Shown one piece after another: positions 37,750 to 42,727 of a stretch of 48,069 nt of DNA. The DNA comes from Ignavibacteria bacterium. GTDB lineage: Bacteria > Bacteroidota > Ignavibacteria > Kapaibacteriales > UBA4661. The translations under genes were made by a program, and so were the position numbers. Under the pieces are notes generated by a model. The model did no database searches and was not told the origin of the DNA. It saw nothing but the letters and a program-made list of their open reading frames with translations. Numbering within the stretch: position 1 is the stretch's first letter; each line of letters opens with the position of its first letter. The stretch lies in contig JAAFIV010000035.1 in assembly GCA_013298775.1 (NCBI GenBank), positions 1 to 48,069 of the forward strand. Reading direction: 5' to 3'.

Positions 37750-39882
37750 TTACTCCGCTTGCGGCAATTCCACAATAAACGTCGCTCCTGCACCATAGAC
37801 GCTTTCGCACCACACCTCGCCATTCATTGAACCGACCATTTTTTTGACAATCGAAAGTCCCAAACCTGTTGATTGTTCGCCGTTGGTGGGCTTTGCCGAG
37901 AGGCGCATGAACTTCCCAAATAATTTTTTTTTATCGTCGTCCGACAAGCCCGGACCTTCGTCCTGCACTTCAATCCGCACACACGATGGCGAAGATGTTG
38001 CATTCCCCGTCAGTGCGCTTTCTTGCGGTGTCCAAGTTCGCTCGCCGTAAATGCGCATCCACACATTTTTGCCGGATGGCGAGTATTTAATGGCATTGGA
38101 AACGATGTTTTCCAAAATTTGCATGACGGCAGTTTGGTCGCCAAGACAATCGGCATCGGAAAAGCTGTCGAAATGGAGCTGTACGCCCTTCGCTTCGGCT
38201 CGCGCTTCGTATTCTTCAAAGACCGAATATGCCGCTACCGAGATATTGAACGCCGTTACATTCAGCGTGATTGCGCCACGCTCAATCGCATTCACATTCA
38301 GAAGATTGCTGATAATGCGCGACATTTGGTCGGAAGAGGAAATAATCGTCGTTGTGAAGCGTTGGCGGTCGTGGTCGGGAACGCTCTGGTCGTGCATGAG
38401 CTGTGCCAGGAGCTTGATGGATAGAATAGGATTTTTTAGGTCGTGCGCAACAATCCCAAAAAACTCATTTTTCTCTGTGTTTAATTCTTCCAGATGCTCG
38501 TTTTTGCGGGCAATCACATCGTTTGCAAGCTCAAGTTCGCTATTTGTTTTTTGCAATTCCACAGCCGCTTTTTGCTTGATGCGATAGCCATTGGCAAGCA
38601 AAATCACCACTGCCGCAACCAGCACAAAACCTATGGCGAGAAACAAAAAGCGTTGATTTTGCAATTGAATTTTTTGCTCTTGCAATTGCAAATCACGCTG
38701 TTTTTGTTCGATAGAACGCTGCTTCTGGACAAGTTCGTATCGAGCTTCAGCATTGGCAAGGCGTTTGTCGCTTTGGTCATTGAAAATACTATCTTTCAAC
38801 TGATTATCAAGCCGAGCATATTCGAGCGCGAGTTTGTAGTTCCCCTGCGCGGAATAGAAGTCGGACAGACTAAAATAACAGGCTTGCAAGAGCGAACGCG
38901 AATGCAGTTCCTGTGCGAGCATGAGGGCATTGTTGAGGTATTTTTTTGCGTTGATATAATCTTGCTGCCCATTGTACACGTTGGCGATATTGATGTATAG
39001 TTCACCAAGCATGAGTTTATCGGGCGTGGAGGCTTCAAGGATTGTTTGCACCTTGAGCAAATACGGCAATGCTTGTGCATAATAATCGCGCACAAGATAA
39101 ATCGTGCCAATACCATTCAGCGCAGTTGCAATGCCGGTTGTATTGTTTAATTCTTTCCAAATGCCGAGTGCTTGTTCGTAGTTTTTGAGTGCAATTTCAA
39201 CGCTATCTTGCTCGTCGTACACGAGAGCAATATTGCTCAAAGTATTGGCAAAACCTTGCTTGTCGCCCAAAGAAAGATAGAGCTGCTGCGCCTTTTGATA
39301 ACTCTCAATCGCCTGACGGAAATTGCTTCGCTTGTAATACGTTCCACCTAAGCTATTCCAAACTCGCGCAATATCTCGCTTCTCGCCAAGTTCTTCGTAC
39401 AATTTCAAGGATTCAAAAAAGTGTTGAGCAGCGTTGTCGTAGGTTCCCTGCCGATAATACACCGTTCCCGTGATACGCAACGCCTCTGCTTGCCCCTGTT
39501 TGTCGCCGAGTGTTTGTGCGGCTTTCTTCGCTTCTTCTGCGTATTCTATCGCTTTGGGAGGATTATTCATCAGGTAATCATTCGCAAGCGTATTCAGCAT
39601 TTGCACCAATTTCACGTCGGTAAATTGTGGACGCTCACGCTTGTAGGCAGCAAGTTCGCGCTCAAGACTATCGGCACGCGAAAGCGAGGAAGAAAGAGGT
39701 GTCTGCGAAGAAGATGCCTGCGAAGAAGATGATTGCGAAGAAGATGATTGTGGAGAAGATGATTGCGAAGAAAAAACCTGTGCAGATGCAGCACAAGCAC
39801 GATATGGTGCGGTGTACAAGCACAACGCGGCACAAAAAATGAGTGTGATTGAACAGAAAGGGAAAGTGCGTAAAAAGCGCAT
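37750..39882 (-). CDS. TPR-containing membrane histidine kinase
   Basis: A 710-residue kinase. A signal peptide (about 1-32) is followed by a serine/glutamine repeat (about 35-60), six or more tetratricopeptide repeats (about 85-390), one membrane helix near 420 (FLFLAIGFVLVAAVVILLA), a coiled coil and a HisKA domain with H480 (IVAHDLKNPILS), then a HATPase with NIVSNAIKYSPSG, QDEGPGLSDDDKKKLFGKF and TGLGLSIVKKM. The periplasmic TPRs probably sense a protein partner. No receiver is fused or adjacent. It is convergent with the cyclotransferase gene. The ATG at 39882 is the only start that yields a signal peptide. Confidence 0.93.
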   Translation of the reverse strand: MRFLRTFPFCSITLIFCAALCLYTAPYRACAASAQVFSSQSSSPQSSSSQSSSSQASSSQTPLSSSLSRADSLERELAAYKRERPQFTDVKLVQMLNTLANDYLMNNPPKAIEYAEEAKKAAQTLGDKQGQAEALRITGTVYYRQGTYDNAAQHFFESLKLYEELGEKRDIARVWNSLGGTYYKRSNFRQAIESYQKAQQLYLSLGDKQGFANTLSNIALVYDEQDSVEIALKNYEQALGIWKELNNTTGIATALNGIGTIYLVRDYYAQALPYLLKVQTILEASTPDKLMLGELYINIANVYNGQQDYINAKKYLNNALMLAQELHSRSLLQACYFSLSDFYSAQGNYKLALEYARLDNQLKDSIFNDQSDKRLANAEARYELVQKQRSIEQKQRDLQLQEQKIQLQNQRFLFLAIGFVLVAAVVILLANGYRIKQKAAVELQKTNSELELANDVIARKNEHLEELNTEKNEFFGIVAHDLKNPILSIKLLAQLMHDQSVPDHDRQRFTTTIISSSDQMSRIISNLLNVNAIERGAITLNVTAFNISVAAYSVFEEYEARAEAKGVQLHFDSFSDADCLGDQTAVMQILENIVSNAIKYSPSGKNVWMRIYGERTWTPQESALTGNATSSPSCVRIEVQDEGPGLSDDDKKKLFGKFMRLSAKPTNGEQSTGLGLSIVKKMVGSMNGEVWCESVYGAGATFIVELPQAE
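39704..39778 (-). repeat. Five 15-bp tandem repeats inside the TPR kinase gene
   Basis: TGCGAAGAAGATGAT (plus strand) occurs five times with small changes. On the coding strand it encodes repeated S-S-Q units between the signal peptide and the TPR domain. Fifteen-base units keep the frame, so the linker length can vary without loss of the protein. Confidence 0.88.
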
Positions 39883-40184
39883 GATATCTAGGGTTCAGGG
39901 GATAGATGTGTACATTCGTGGACGCACTGTGGGGCGTGCAATGGTATTGTATGCTATGGAAGTATTGTATTCGTCTTGGAGCGTCTTGTCATGCTACTAC
40001 CTACAAAGTGAACAAAAGCGAATACTCTGTTCGTTTTTGCCGTGAACCTCTACCAAGTAGTTATTGCCTGACAAACGTTATTTTTCGTATGAACACAGCA
40101 AATATACCGCAAAGGTATAAGAGAAACAATATGTTACAGGTGTAAAGTTATCCTGAGTGTGGCAGAAGTTTTGTGTAAATGGTG
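39883..40184. other. Gene-free stretch upstream of the TPR kinase
   Basis: About 300 bases with no convincing gene. The promoter of the TPR kinase should lie in the part near 39883-40000. The sequence becomes AT-rich towards 40140. TTTTGTGTAA at 40169-40178 recurs at 40338-40347, on the other side of the palindromic element. Confidence 0.5.
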
Positions 40185-40330
40185 GTAACTCGTCAGGTAT
40201 CTCCCCGTCGGGTGGCTGAAGAGTGCGTAAACGCTGCCTTACGGCGGGTGCATTGCTGGCACACCACTCGCCGTAAGGCTACTGCACTTGTGATAACAGT
40301 CGCCCAACGAGATAGTACCTGACCAGTTAC
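40185..40330. mobile_element. Palindromic element flanked by a 10-bp direct repeat
   Basis: The ends GTAACTCGTCAGGTAT and GTACCTGACCAGTTAC are inverted repeats, and inner arms GCCTTACGGCGGGTG and CACTCGCCGTAAGGC also pair. TTTTGTGTAA lies on both sides. The right edge meets the broken gene copy at 40327-40425 and supplies its stop codon. GTAACTGGTCAG, as at its right end, is seen again at 47931. Confidence 0.7.
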
Positions 40331-40425
40331 CAAATTGTTTTGTGTAATTGAAACTCCGCTTTGAGTTGGTCTATACCCCACTTCTCAAAGGGCTTGAGCG
40401 TTGGTTTGCCGTTTGTGGTTTTCAT
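40327..40425 (-). pseudogene. Truncated third copy of the tandem nuclease-like family
   Basis: Translation from the ATG at 40425 gives MKTTNGKPTLKPFEKW, then GIDQLKAEFQL, which is nearly identical to the first 27 residues of the gene at 41169-41834. After that the match stops abruptly and a stop codon follows five codons later (TAA at 40327-40329), within the edge of the palindromic element. The DNA match is about 90 percent over 80 bases. Unlike the two whole copies, the sequence upstream of its ATG does not carry the shared leader. It is a remnant of a duplicated gene. Confidence 0.88.
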
Positions 40426-40471
40426 GCTGTTTAAGTTGGTAAAAGTATGGTGCGTTGTACAAAAAATGTCG

Positions 40472-41104
40472 TTACTGCTGATTTAACAAGTCTTCAATGA
40501 TTGCTTTTGCCTCTTTGAGCAGCCGCAGCATCCCAAATACCTCATCTTTCGTGGCATCGTAGGCAAGGCTTTCGGCGTATTCCTGTCTATCCAAAACCAC
40601 AAAAAACCAGTTTCTCCCTTGCACATAGCATCCGTAGAGAGCGTGTTTGTTCTCGTTGAGTTCTCGTGCCGCGAGCATTTCCACCAGTAACTGCGCCAAA
40701 GGGTCGTTTTCACGTCCGCGTGTGCGCTTGTATTCGTGCAGGAAAAAGAATGGCTGAATCGGCTTTGATTTCCCAGTGGCGACAACAAAATCTACGCGCC
40801 CGCTTAAAGGGACACCGTTCACCGTCGCGCTCAAGGTGCGCTGCGTGAAGGCATTAAAGCGGTCGGTATCGTAACCAACGATGCTCACAAAGGGCGCGAT
40901 AAATTTGAACTTCAGCTCATCTTCGTTCCAAATATCTATTTTGTGAACGAGATTTGTTTGAAGATGCTTGATGTTTGCGCGTTCTTGTTCGGTAATCTCT
41001 TGGTTGGCTGCCAACCACTCGTTGAGTGCAGAAAGCGTGTCGCTGCGACGAATGCCGAAGGTGTGCTCTACCTCGTCAATATCCCATTGTTCAAAGGTTT
41101 TCAT
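40472..41104 (-). CDS. PD-(D/E)XK nuclease-like protein, tandem paralogue A
   Basis: A 210-residue soluble protein, clearly a paralogue of the next gene (about half identical; near-identical blocks ELKFKFI, VDFVVATGK, PFFFLHEYKR, HALYGCYVQGRNWFFVVL). I do not know a named family. The core pattern E62 (in EDELKFKF), D105 (RVDFVVATG), E124-x-K126 (HEYKR) and Q138 fits a PD-(D/E)XK nuclease fold, with Asp, Glu and Lys as the metal-binding catalytic set; this is inference. The ATG at 41104 has AGAGGA about nine bases upstream, in a 29-bp leader shared exactly with paralogue B. It follows B by 64 bases on the same strand. Confidence 0.8.
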   Translation of the reverse strand: MKTFEQWDIDEVEHTFGIRRSDTLSALNEWLAANQEITEQERANIKHLQTNLVHKIDIWNEDELKFKFIAPFVSIVGYDTDRFNAFTQRTLSATVNGVPLSGRVDFVVATGKSKPIQPFFFLHEYKRTRGRENDPLAQLLVEMLAARELNENKHALYGCYVQGRNWFFVVLDRQEYAESLAYDATKDEVFGMLRLLKEAKAIIEDLLNQQ

Positions 41105-41133
41105 CGTTGTTCCTCTTCGTAAATTTGTGTATG
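41105..41133 (-). promoter_or_regulatory. Shared 29-bp leader, copy in front of paralogue A
   Basis: Reading on the minus strand, CATACACAAATTTACGAAGA then GGAACAACG directly precedes the ATG. The identical 29 bases precede paralogue B (41835-41863). It contains the ribosome binding site AGAGGA. Complete identity in a non-coding leader, where the genes have diverged by half, suggests selection on the leader. Confidence 0.8.
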
Positions 41134-41168
41134 ATGAAAATGACATTTTTCCCTGCAAACAAGTATCA

Positions 41169-41834
41169 TTACTGCCGCGCAGCAAGAATTTCCTCAATAT
41201 ACGCTTTAGCTTGTTGTAAGATTGCCATGATTTGAAACACATCTTCCTGCGTCGAAACAAACGCATCACTTACTGCATAATCCTTGCCCTCCAAGACCAC
41301 AAAAAACCAGTTGCGCCCAACGACATAGCATCCATACAGGGGGTGCTTTTGAGCGTTGAGTGTTTGTGCGGCGTACATGGCAATCAGCAACTGCCCAAGC
41401 GGGTCATTATTTGCTCCGCGCTCTTTTTTGTACTCGTGCAGAAAGAAAAACGGTTCTTGCGGCTCTACTTTGCCCGTAGCTACCATAAAATCAACAATCC
41501 CCGTAATTTTTTCACCATTCAGTTCCGCAGGAAGTTTTCTGTCCAAAAATGCGGAATACTCTTCGGAATCGAACCGAATCATGGAAATAAGCGGTCCGAT
41601 GAACTTAAACTTGAGTTCTTCCTCATTCCAGAAGTCCACATTTTTTCGCAAAAATTCTTGTAAACTCAAAACTGCTCGGCGGATGTCCTCTGCAAGCGGT
41701 ATCAATGGACTTGTTATCCACGTTTCGAGTAATGGTAATGTATCACGCCGCCGTAATTGAAACTCCGTTTTGAGTTGGTCTATATTCCACTTCTCAAAGG
41801 GTTTAAGTGTTGGTTTGCCGTTTGTGGTTTTCAT
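41169..41834 (-). CDS. PD-(D/E)XK nuclease-like protein, tandem paralogue B
   Basis: A 221-residue paralogue of the preceding entry, with an extra 11 residues at the N-terminus (KTTNGKPTLK region) that are also in the broken copy at 40327-40425. The putative nuclease residues are E72 (EEELKFKF), D115 (GIVDFMVATG), E134-x-K136 (HEYKKE) and Q148 (GQLLIAMYAAQ). The conserved C-terminal NWFFVVL strand and a helix ending the protein complete the domain. The ATG at 41834 has AGAGGA about nine bases upstream. The gene is divergent from the Sir2 gene, 101 bases apart, so the two promoters share this space. Confidence 0.8.
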   Translation of the reverse strand: MKTTNGKPTLKPFEKWNIDQLKTEFQLRRRDTLPLLETWITSPLIPLAEDIRRAVLSLQEFLRKNVDFWNEEELKFKFIGPLISMIRFDSEEYSAFLDRKLPAELNGEKITGIVDFMVATGKVEPQEPFFFLHEYKKERGANNDPLGQLLIAMYAAQTLNAQKHPLYGCYVVGRNWFFVVLEGKDYAVSDAFVSTQEDVFQIMAILQQAKAYIEEILAARQ

Positions 41835-41863
41835 CGTTGTTCCTCTTCGTAAATTTGTGTATG
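41835..41863 (-). promoter_or_regulatory. Shared 29-bp leader, copy in front of paralogue B
   Basis: The same 29 bases as at 41105-41133, directly before the ATG of paralogue B. Beyond it the two upstream regions differ. It lies in the divergent spacer with the Sir2 gene. Confidence 0.8.
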
Positions 41864-41935
41864 TTGAGCCAGAAAGAATACCCGCAAATCTACAAATCAT
41901 TTCCATTCTGTGCTATCTTGTCCTTCCGAACGACT

Positions 41936-42727
41936 ATGAACACTCTCTCACACCGCGCACAAACCTCTGAATACCGCTTCAGTGCTGAATTACTGAACAC
42001 ACTCCGCACCGCAAAGCGCGTCGCCGTGCTGACGGGCGCAGGTATTTCCGCCGAAAGTGGCGTGGCGACCTTCCGCGACCCAAACGGCTTGTGGTCGAAA
42101 TTTCGCCCCGAAGAGCTTGCAAGTATGGATGGCTTTTTGAAAAATCCGAACCTCGTTTGGGAATGGTATCAAGCGCGGCGCGAGGTTGTGGACAGCGTGA
42201 AACCTAATCCCGGACATTTTTCGCTCGTGGAGATGCAGAAGTATTACGCGGCAGAGGGCAGCGAGTTTACGCTCATCACGCAGAACGTGGACAGATTGCA
42301 CCAAGCAGCCGGCAGCCAGAACGTGGTGGAACTGCACGGAAATATCATTGAAAATTACTGCTCGCGCTGCAAAGAACCGCATGAATACGTCTATGCAGCC
42401 AATCCCGCACAAAAAGAGCCACCGCGCTGCGCCTACTGTGGCGGAATGGTGCGCCCTGCGGTGGTCTGGTTTGGCGAAATGCTTCCTGTGGATGCTCTGG
42501 AGACCGCATCAGAAGCGGCTTCTGCTTGCGAGGTGTTTTTTAGCATTGGTACATCGGCGGAAGTGTATCCAGCGGCGGGTTTGCCGCTCGAAGCAAAACG
42601 GAATGGTGCGCTGTTCATTGAAGTCAATCCCAACGAAACCGCCATTTCACGCTATGCCGATGTGCGTATTAGTGCGCCTTCGGGCGAGGCGTTACCTGCA
42701 TTGTGGGAAGCAGTTATGAAAAAATAA
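41936..42727 (+). CDS. cobB: NAD-dependent protein deacylase, Sir2 class III type
   Basis: A 263-residue sirtuin. The NAD site is GAGISAESGVATFRDPNGLW (34-53), TQNVDRLH follows at 115-122, and H134 in ELHGN is the catalytic base. Zinc is held by C142, C145, C165 and C168. WYQARR at 77-82 supplies Y78 and R81, the Tyr-x-x-Arg pair that in SIRT5 and CobB binds succinyl or malonyl lysine, so desuccinylation is likely besides deacetylation. It has no fused nuclease or other defence domain. The ATG at 41936 is chosen because the frame upstream overlaps the divergent paralogue B. A strong terminator follows its stop. Confidence 0.93.
   Translation: MNTLSHRAQTSEYRFSAELLNTLRTAKRVAVLTGAGISAESGVATFRDPNGLWSKFRPEELASMDGFLKNPNLVWEWYQARREVVDSVKPNPGHFSLVEMQKYYAAEGSEFTLITQNVDRLHQAAGSQNVVELHGNIIENYCSRCKEPHEYVYAANPAQKEPPRCAYCGGMVRPAVVWFGEMLPVDALETASEAASACEVFFSIGTSAEVYPAAGLPLEAKRNGALFIEVNPNETAISRYADVRISAPSGEALPALWEAVMKK

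What the first reader, a model, noticed from the sequence alone, without database searches (positions are those of the whole stretch)
40327..41863. Tandem family of PD-(D/E)XK-like proteins with an identical leader and a broken third copy, beside a sirtuin
Two whole paralogues (210 and 221 residues) lie head to tail, with a truncated third copy behind a palindromic element. The proteins are only about half identical, but 29 bases directly before each ATG are exactly the same. The conserved set E, D, E-x-K and Q in the expected order suggests a nuclease fold. Repeated local duplication, loss of one copy and a conserved leader are what one expects of defence or conflict genes; the neighbouring Sir2 is a plain deacylase, so a joint role is not shown.
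Basis: partly seen in the sequence, partly recalled or inferred. Interest (0 to 1): 0.68.

Follow-up and report, generated by a model that had tools for sequence, protein, structure and literature searches.

The report
Nuclease family with exchanged N-terminal segment
The two neighbouring genes belong to an unnamed family of predicted DNA-cutting proteins that sits as lone genes all over this bacterial genome and seems to move between species, keeping the cutting part almost unchanged while one short N-terminal segment is exchanged in some copies, as one would expect of genes fighting phages or rival DNA, although no function has been tested.

Summary
In detail: two intact genes (221 and 210 aa, 50% identical), 29 identical bases before each ATG, and a third copy of about 27 codons ending beside a repeat. 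The nuclease reading is supported: AlphaFold2 gives a confident PD-(D/E)XK fold and the key positions are conserved across 99 members. "Local duplication" is not: A and B are not nearest relatives, and 17 full-length members are scattered over the genome. At the same Sir2 locus a sister genome has the same leader before a different member; orthologues of B and A lie at other loci elsewhere. Main new result: some near-identical orthologues differ almost completely in one N-terminal segment (residues 28-66). Of 14 pairs with core identity of at least 0.90, segment identity is at least 0.82 in 10 and at most 0.39 in 4 (three events); silent codon changes there are raised too, which suggests segmental exchange, though no donor was found. 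The sirtuin has no constant link. The best whole-length fold match is to mitoribosome chains read as mL37 and mL65, already called repurposed endonucleases. Best guess: a mobile conflict DNase whose N-terminal module sets specificity. Function untested.

The parts
41169..41834 (-). Gene B, 221 aa, predicted PD-(D/E)XK protein
   Evidence: AlphaFold2 pLDDT 91.7, pTM 0.88; canonical secondary-structure order
40472..41104 (-). Gene A, 210 aa, family member from another branch (50% to B); nearest relative is the G002 orthologue (0.98 over residues 69-216 of B)
40344..40425 (-). Fragment C: codons 1-27 of a B-like gene, 76 of 82 bases identical; the ungapped homology stops where the variable segment begins, 12 bases from the repeat
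41835..41912 (-). B leader (about 78 bases). Homologous leaders stand before family genes or remnants at different loci in G001, G002 (two) and G007, and at the same Sir2 locus in G005
41105..41133 (-). 29-base end of the same leader, copied before gene A
41637..41753 (-). Variable segment of B (residues 28-66; helices 34-40 and 49-65)
40937..41053 (-). Corresponding segment of A (residues 18-56, counted back from the WNE motif); nearly unchanged in G002's A (0.97)
41427..41435 (-). E-x-K motif of B (E134, K136); E134 in 99 of 99 and K136 in 97 of 99 members
41490..41492 (-). D115 of B: D in 82, E in 17 of 99 members
40184..40331 (.). 148-base repeat with 16-base inverted ends, dispersed in the genome; next to fragment C but not part of the family
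41939..42727 (+). Sir2 deacylase gene, neighbour with a match in each of 9 genomes, not part of the system

Best explanation
A and B are two members of an unnamed, multi-copy family of stand-alone PD-(D/E)XK proteins. Shown by sequence: active-site residues kept under strong constraint; lone genes at many loci; patchy presence; the same leader with different members behind it at one locus, and the same members at different loci in related genomes; near-constant nuclease cores whose N-terminal segment (residues 28-66) differs wholesale between some close relatives. Inferred: the segment is replaced by recombination between conserved flanks (first ~27 codons and the WNE motif); the protein cuts DNA, probably as a dimer; the helical N-terminal module decides what activates it or which copies bind each other; the genes are kept because they act against phages or other incoming DNA, much like Rpn proteins but with the variable module at the other end. 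The Sir2 locus is one landing place, not an operon partner.
For: Fold and residues. A second model, of B's G002 orthologue with the other segment, has the same elements, pLDDT 92.4. Copy number: 19 matches in this genome, 0 in two of the eight genomes of the genus; 7 of 41 relatives and 4 of 395 genomes of the phylum match, the own genome counted in both. Mobility: several members are closer between G000 and G002 than Sir2 is (contig C19 gene: core 120 of 122 residues, pS 0.28; Sir2 191 of 252, pS 0.67); B is 96-98% identical to G001's (3' half pS 0.43; Sir2 0.79 and pS 0.64); the orthologues of B and A lie at other loci; a different member stands behind the same leader at the Sir2 locus of G005. 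Segment exchange: 14 pairs with core of at least 0.90 split into 10 at 0.82 or more and 4 at 0.39 or less; C33 G000-G002 differs at 24 of 41 segment residues, C33 G000-G005 at 2 of 41, with 1 and 2 of 122 core differences, p=1.6e-7; at codons with unchanged amino acids the segment shows more codon changes than the core in 5 of 6 variable pairs (uncorrected p 0.002-0.044; B p=0.22; two of the pairs share C33 in G002) and in 0 of 4 control pairs (p 0.16-0.82). No relative found among phages, plasmids or viral contigs. Rpn precedent: PMC10327210 (abstract, opening text, sections 4, 11, 13).
Against: No activity, toxicity or phage test exists. The 4 low pairs are only 3 independent events; the 26 pairs with core 0.8-0.9 fill the range (segment 0.29-0.79), so fast evolution contributes. 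No donor was found: in the 84-member set no pair had segment identity of at least 0.6 with core below 0.75. Most neighbours look like ordinary genes: of 10 neighbour proteins scanned (of 30 nearest ORFs picked mechanically), 8 had no PADLOC match; the two that did both lie in the C8 stretch, a cyclase-like protein (PycC models, 8e-20) and a helicase (DpdF models, 2.5e-184) that I read as RecQ-type from a recalled motif. Dimerisation is inferred only from distant structures. Sir2 is the only synonymous yardstick; FtsK gave identities only. Against G005 the picture is mixed: members have pS 0.01 (C1), 0.34-0.42 (C33, C78, C10) and 0.64-0.70 (C12, C8b, C5) against 0.30 for Sir2.
Confidence: 0.5

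Rival explanations
1. Selfish lone genes: the proteins mainly promote their own spread (as homing or recombination-promoting nucleases), and copy number and mobility reflect that and not host benefit.
For: Lone gene units of the B group with borders about 78 bases before the ATG and 10-17 bases after the stop at different loci; decayed remnants behind leaders; patchy copy number.
Against: No target-site duplication or terminal repeat was noticed at the unit ends in the sequences viewed (not a systematic test); borders of other groups vary; a selfish nuclease does not predict an exchanged N-terminal segment on a constrained core.
Confidence: 0.25
2. The N-terminal segment is not exchanged but diversifies quickly in place under selection by phage or partner proteins.
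For: Segment pN is 0.33-0.60 in the most variable pairs; intermediate pairs exist; no donor found.
Against: Silent codon changes at unchanged residues are also raised in the segment in 5 of 6 variable pairs and in 0 of 4 controls; no pair with core of at least 0.90 has a value between 0.39 and 0.82.
Confidence: 0.25
3. Simple tandem duplication of a defence gene beside Sir2.
For: Head-to-tail order, identical leader end, B-like fragment. Other tandem pairs exist (contig C2; G004:C5).
Against: A and B are not nearest relatives; each has an orthologue elsewhere; of the genomes seen only G005 has a member at this Sir2 locus, and it is another one.
Confidence: 0.05

Closest known systems
Rpn (recombination-promoting nuclease, COG5464 / PF04754)
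   Same: PD-(D/E)XK superfamily; many copies, patchy, gained or lost as single genes without conventional transposon ends; a helical variable domain (PMC10327210, sections 4, 11, 13 read)
   Different: Variable part is N-terminal and differs as a block, not a C-terminal domain with four-residue repeats that is also translated on its own; no Rpn family among the 11 Pfam families hit by 51 members at E<=0.1; no activity known
PADLOC PDLC01472 'PD_DExK' (listed as CRISPR-associated)
   Same: All 51 members scanned match, best E=1.9e-18, so this profile is the nearest named model found
   Different: The profile (146 positions) matches only the core of B, residues 78-208; no cas gene among the 10 neighbours scanned; CRISPR linkage elsewhere not examined
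Mitoribosome large-subunit proteins mL37 and mL65 (chains '5'/'a' and 's'; names recalled, not given by the tool)
   Same: Whole-length fold match incl. N-terminal module: Z 15.6, 3.8 A, 209 residues and Z 14.0, 4.0 A, 206 residues; 16.0 and 14.1 for the second model. A review calls mL65/mL37 a pseudo-dimer of (in its legend: probably) repurposed endonucleases (PMC8998825, passages)
   Different: About 12% and 6% identity, no sequence-level match; structural proteins of the animal mitoribosome
Nuclease domains of type IIG enzymes BpuSI and DrdV, HsdR, NucC, Cas4
   Same: Core fold: BpuSI Z 10.6, 3.9 A, 144 residues; DrdV 10.2, 3.2 A, 134; HsdR fragment 8.7, 4.7 A, 128; NucC 6.7, 4.6 A, 155; Cas4 6.4, 7.0 A, 129
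   Different: BpuSI, DrdV, HsdR and NucC begin to match at residues 46-65, so most of the N-terminal module is not covered; the Cas4 rows span 5-186 but fit loosely; no constant partner gene seen here
Pfam PDDEXK_12 (PF20516)
   Same: Weak similarity, 10 of 51 members at E<=0.1, best 2.6e-4
   Different: B scores 16.1 bits against a cut-off of 27; cut-offs were shown only for the first member

Membership tests
PD-(D/E)XK nuclease superfamily | alpha-beta-beta-beta-alpha-beta core | tested here: met
   H71-84, E94-100, E108-111, E113-120, E126-135, H145-159, E166-172; searches match solved members
PD-(D/E)XK nuclease superfamily | D ... E-x-K catalytic residues | tested here: met
   position 115 D 82, E 17 of 99; 134 E 99; 136 K 97; also E71 97, Q148 98. 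The meeting of the residues in space was not measured (no coordinates)
PD-(D/E)XK nuclease superfamily | DNA cleavage | not testable with these tools
   none
Rpn (PF04754) | matches the family profile | tested here: not met
   not among the 11 families hit by 51 members at E<=0.1; HMMER filters drop most weak matches
Rpn (PF04754) | variable C-terminal domain with four-residue repeats | tested here: not met
   the most variable part is residues 28-66 (mean column entropy 2.86; C-terminal 191-216 2.29; core 1.72); repeats not searched for
Rpn (PF04754) | multi-copy, moves as a single gene | tested here: met
PADLOC PDLC01472 PD_DExK | profile match | tested here: met
   51 of 51
PADLOC PDLC01472 PD_DExK | association with CRISPR-Cas | not tested
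   only 10 neighbour proteins scanned
mL37/mL65 lineage | common ancestry with these proteins | tested here: inconclusive
   strong fold match, no sequence match, predicted structures of cellular proteins not searched
Restriction-modification system | cognate methyltransferase next door | tested here: inconclusive
   among the 30 nearest ORFs of 15 loci in this genome the only similar pair is the C2 tandem itself; neighbours were not scanned for methyltransferases
Sir2-linked defence | conserved adjacency to Sir2 | tested here: not met
   of 8 other genomes only G005 has a member beside Sir2; no match to B lies on the Sir2 contig of the other 7, the Sir2 of G002 and G009 lying near a contig end

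The most novel reading that the evidence does not exclude
A so far undescribed conflict-nuclease family that diversifies by cassette-like exchange: whole members change places behind shared leaders, and within members a 39-residue helical recognition module is replaced by recombination between conserved flanks. The same two-part architecture is the bacterial stock from which the animal mitoribosome pair mL37/mL65 was drawn.
Probability: 0.25. Interest if true: 0.8.

Novelty: new variant of a known kind. Interest (0 to 1): 0.55.

Why it matters
If right, it gives a natural series of nearly identical nucleases that differ in one module, so one can ask directly what the module recognises; it adds a second PD-(D/E)XK family that behaves like Rpn but is built the other way round; and it offers a bacterial whole-length fold relative for two mitoribosome proteins described as repurposed endonucleases.

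Tried and rejected
Sir2 partnership: rejected on adjacency. Phage or plasmid carriage: no match found in phages, plasmids or viral contigs (the viral-contig scan works from short patterns, 69 stretches matched a pattern and none was confirmed). Structured RNA: no Rfam match at gathering score in window 39800-42000. Known Pfam, NCBIfam or PHROG family: no convincing match. Shared neighbour or antitoxin: none among 30 nearest ORFs of 15 loci, which were picked mechanically and include doubtful ones. Sequence relation to solved structures: one chance-level match, HALC4_135 at E=1.7. A link of the family to the 148-base repeat was not tested statistically. Paper searches for mL37 + mL65 + nuclease (no paper), MRPL37 + MRPS30, mL37 + mL65 + evolution, PDDEXK + hypervariable and Kapabacteria + nuclease showed nothing on this family in their listings; I looked inside PMC10327210 (abstract, opening text, sections 4, 11, 13), and at passages of PMC8998825, PMC7326499 and PMC11452305.

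Faults of my own that were replaced: the aligner failed silently and the rows printed are unaligned; the Sir2 rows of G002 and G006 were read in the wrong orientation (corrected), and the row 'B vs G001 5half' was out of frame (the 98% comes); searches left out gene A and its G002 orthologue through an extraction fault (redone for all but the tree and the donor search; the bootstrap of the tree had not settled). In one search the lenient aligner carried the G001 leader to -188 through poorly matching sequence. Rows dropped: of 136 places 5 for internal stops, 6 short, 12 without the WN. motif, 14 duplicates; 99 kept. The structure alignment A1 holds 51 of the 60 rows first listed.

Full report
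What is there. On the minus strand lie B (41169-41834, 221 aa) and A (40472-41104, 210 aa), head to tail, then a fragment C of a B-like gene (40344-40425) ending 12 bases from a 148-base repeat with exact 16-base inverted ends. The 29 bases before both ATGs are identical and the identity runs 9 bases into both genes.

Family. The whole genome (5.19 Mb, 95 contigs) has 19 matches to B: 17 full-length members (A and B included; one, on C10, with an in-frame TAA), the fragment, and one distant match. Of 41 genomes (own and relatives) 7 match; within the eight genomes of the genus the number of matches runs from 0 (two genomes) to 19. In a draw of 395 genomes of the phylum only 4 match at E<=1e-10, two of them from the genus, the own genome counted. 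A pattern-based scan of species genomes, which reaches close relatives, found 63 loci, in Kapabacteria/Ignavibacteria, Cytophagales and other Bacteroidota, Chloroflexi, and Desulfobulbaceae or Desulfobacteraceae MAGs. No relative was found in phages, plasmids or viral contigs. Pfam and NCBIfam give only weak hits; the PADLOC profile PDLC01472 PD_DExK matches 51 of 51 members scanned.

Fold. AlphaFold2 on 51 sequences gives pLDDT 91.7 and pTM 0.88 for B, with helices 18-25, 34-40, 49-65 and then the core H71-84, E94-100, E108-111, E113-120, E126-135, H145-159, E166-172, E175-182 and a last helix 198-220. D115 lies in the strand 113-120, E134 at the end of strand 126-135 followed by K136, and Q148 in the helix 145-159. 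Over 99 members E134 is invariant, K136 97, Q148 98, E71 97; position 115 is D in 82 and E in 17. Solved nucleases match the core: BpuSI Z 10.6 (3.9 A, 144 residues), DrdV 10.2 (3.2 A, 134), HsdR fragment 8.7 (4.7 A, 128).

An unexpected match. The best matches, above these nucleases and over the whole length, are chains of the mitoribosome large subunit: chain '5'/'a' Z 15.6 (3.8 A, 209 residues) and chain 's' Z 14.0 (4.0 A, 206 residues); for the second model 16.0 and 14.1. I read these as mL37 and mL65 from memory of chain naming. A review describes mL65 and mL37 as a pseudo-dimer of repurposed endonucleases, in its figure legend 'probably' (PMC8998825, passages seen), so the nuclease origin is in print; that a bacterial family shares the N-terminal module as well is what this adds. 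There is no sequence-level match, and predicted structures of cellular proteins were not on hand, so other bacterial families may be as close.

Not a local duplication. Over residues 69-216 B's nearest relatives are orthologues in G002 (0.93), in a Kapaibacterium record (0.83) and in G007 (0.75); the G001 orthologue is 98% and 96% identical in two contig-end halves. A's nearest is G002's A (0.98). Within the genome A is nearest to the C1 gene (0.68) and B to a C2 gene (0.60). The orthologues lie elsewhere: near genes that I read from their sequence as TPR-histidine kinases (G001 B, G002 A) and between a TPR gene and a glycogen-synthase-like gene (G002 B). Homology between B's places covers the gene, about 78 bases before it and 10-17 after the stop; leaders are 65-90% identical while the 200 bases beyond -90 show 46-54%. 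In G002 the A orthologue is followed by a 3' remnant of a B-like gene.

Leader exchange at the Sir2 locus. In G005 (Sir2 95% identical, same order through to FtsK) the leader between Sir2 and the nuclease gene is 85% identical to that of B (90 of 106 columns), but the coding sequence behind it is another family member, 44% identical to B; its nearest partner in this genome is the C8b gene (core 0.83). A second, cut leader runs straight into a 3' remnant there. In ten genomes the 26-base leader core (up to 3 mismatches) was found 6 times: before four family genes (G000 B, G001, G002 B, G005), before the G005 remnant, and in G007 before a few remaining codons beside a divergent kinase-like gene; the leader of G002's A is homologous but more diverged. 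So leaders and members recombine.

Horizontal movement. Against G002, Sir2 shows 191 of 252 identical residues and pS 0.67; the C19 gene core shows 120 of 122 and pS 0.28, C33 121 of 122 and 0.42, C78 114 of 122 and 0.38; A 0.98 and pS 0.54, so for A the synonymous gap is small. Against G001 the 3' half of B has 0.96 and pS 0.43 (Sir2 200 of 252, 0.64). FtsK identities are 86% to G005 and 49-73% to the others of the genus. Against G005 members have pS 0.01 (C1), 0.34-0.42 (C33, C78, C10) and 0.64-0.70 (C12, C8b, C5), Sir2 0.30, so not every member is a recent arrival.

The variable segment. In several orthologous pairs the first ~27 codons and everything from the WNE motif on are similar or nearly identical while the 39-41 residues between are not. 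Of 14 pairs with core identity of at least 0.90, 10 have segment identity 0.82-0.97 and 4 have 0.36-0.39; the four stand for three events (C33 in G002, C8c, B). C33 is the cleanest: G000-G002 differ at 24 of 41 segment residues, G000-G005 at 2 of 41 (p=1.6e-7), with 1 and 2 of 122 core differences. Counting only codons whose amino acid is unchanged, codon changes are more frequent in the segment than in the core in 5 of 6 variable pairs (uncorrected p 0.002-0.044; B p=0.22; two pairs share the G002 C33 gene, and the C2 and L056 tandem pairs have cores just below 0.90) and in none of 4 controls (p 0.16-0.82). That speaks for replacement by an older-diverged segment and not only for selection on amino acids. 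Against it: no donor was found (84 members), and the 26 pairs with cores of 0.8-0.9 have segment values anywhere from 0.29 to 0.79. The segment is well folded in both models (pLDDT blocks 91-98) and both versions give the same helices; hydrophobic positions L36, W39, L55, L58 and L62 stay mostly conserved, so what changes is mainly the other face (inference). Fragment C's ungapped homology to B ends at codon 27, where this segment begins (the protein match runs to residue 30).

Neighbourhood. The 30 nearest ORFs of 15 loci share nothing but the C2 tandem itself. Of 10 neighbour proteins scanned, 8 had no PADLOC match; two in the C8 stretch did, a cyclase-like protein (PycC models) and a helicase (DpdF models) that I take for RecQ-type. 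This neither makes nor excludes a defence island there.

How it probably works. Shown: family, fold, residues, mobility, leader and segment patterns. Inferred: DNA cleavage; dimerisation; the module as sensor, target selector or self-recognition surface; benefit in conflict with phages or other DNA. The nearest worked example is Rpn, whose variable helical domain mediates dimer formation and inhibition and which protects against certain phages (PMC10327210; abstract and sections 4, 11, 13 read). This family is not Rpn by profile or by position of the variable part, but it may work like it. Confidence in the whole chain is 0.5; in the nuclease fold alone it is far higher.

Verdict. The finding is real, and more interesting as a genome-wide, recombining nuclease family than as a tandem pair beside a sirtuin. 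Novelty: new variant of a known kind.

Noticed in passing
window 40184-40331: 148-base MITE-like repeat with 16-base inverted ends GGTAACTSGTCAGGTA; 42 matches listed in this genome from 40 of 195 candidates scored. A related element sits before Sir2 in G002 and is absent in G004, flanked by ATTTGACG on both sides, which looks like a target-site duplication.
   Followed up: partly
L145 (G007:C131:34594), L011, L013: The B-type leader lies between a family gene or its remnant and a divergent TPR-histidine-kinase-like gene in three genomes. The leader holds TAGATTTG, which fits the Bacteroidota -7 promoter motif TAnnTTTG (motif recalled).
   Followed up: partly
G001:C350:3-389 and G001:C155:7994-8266: The G001 orthologue of B is split between two contig ends at residues 129/131: an insertion in the gene or an assembly break.
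   Followed up: no
L075 (G000:C10:22344-22979), L128, L139, L140: Decaying members with one or many in-frame stops, including one (C10) whose G005 counterpart is intact. The family turns over by birth and death.
   Followed up: partly
L076 vs L114, about residues 190-205: The C19 genes of G000 and G002 are almost identical except for a block near the C-terminus (C-terminal identity 0.58 against core 0.98), a possible second exchange site.
   Followed up: no
family position 115: 17 of 99 members have E instead of D at the first catalytic position while keeping E-x-K; the 13 listed are all from Bacteroidota records, mostly Cytophagales.
   Followed up: partly
L077 (G000:C8:26000-33000): Two family genes, a cyclase-like gene (PycC models, E=8e-20) and a helicase gene (DpdF models, E=2.5e-184; RecQ-like by a recalled motif) lie within 7 kb.
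   Followed up: partly
window 39692-39787: Five copies of a unit spaced by 15 bases near the start of the TPR-histidine-kinase-like gene, coding a Ser/Gln-rich stretch.
   Followed up: no
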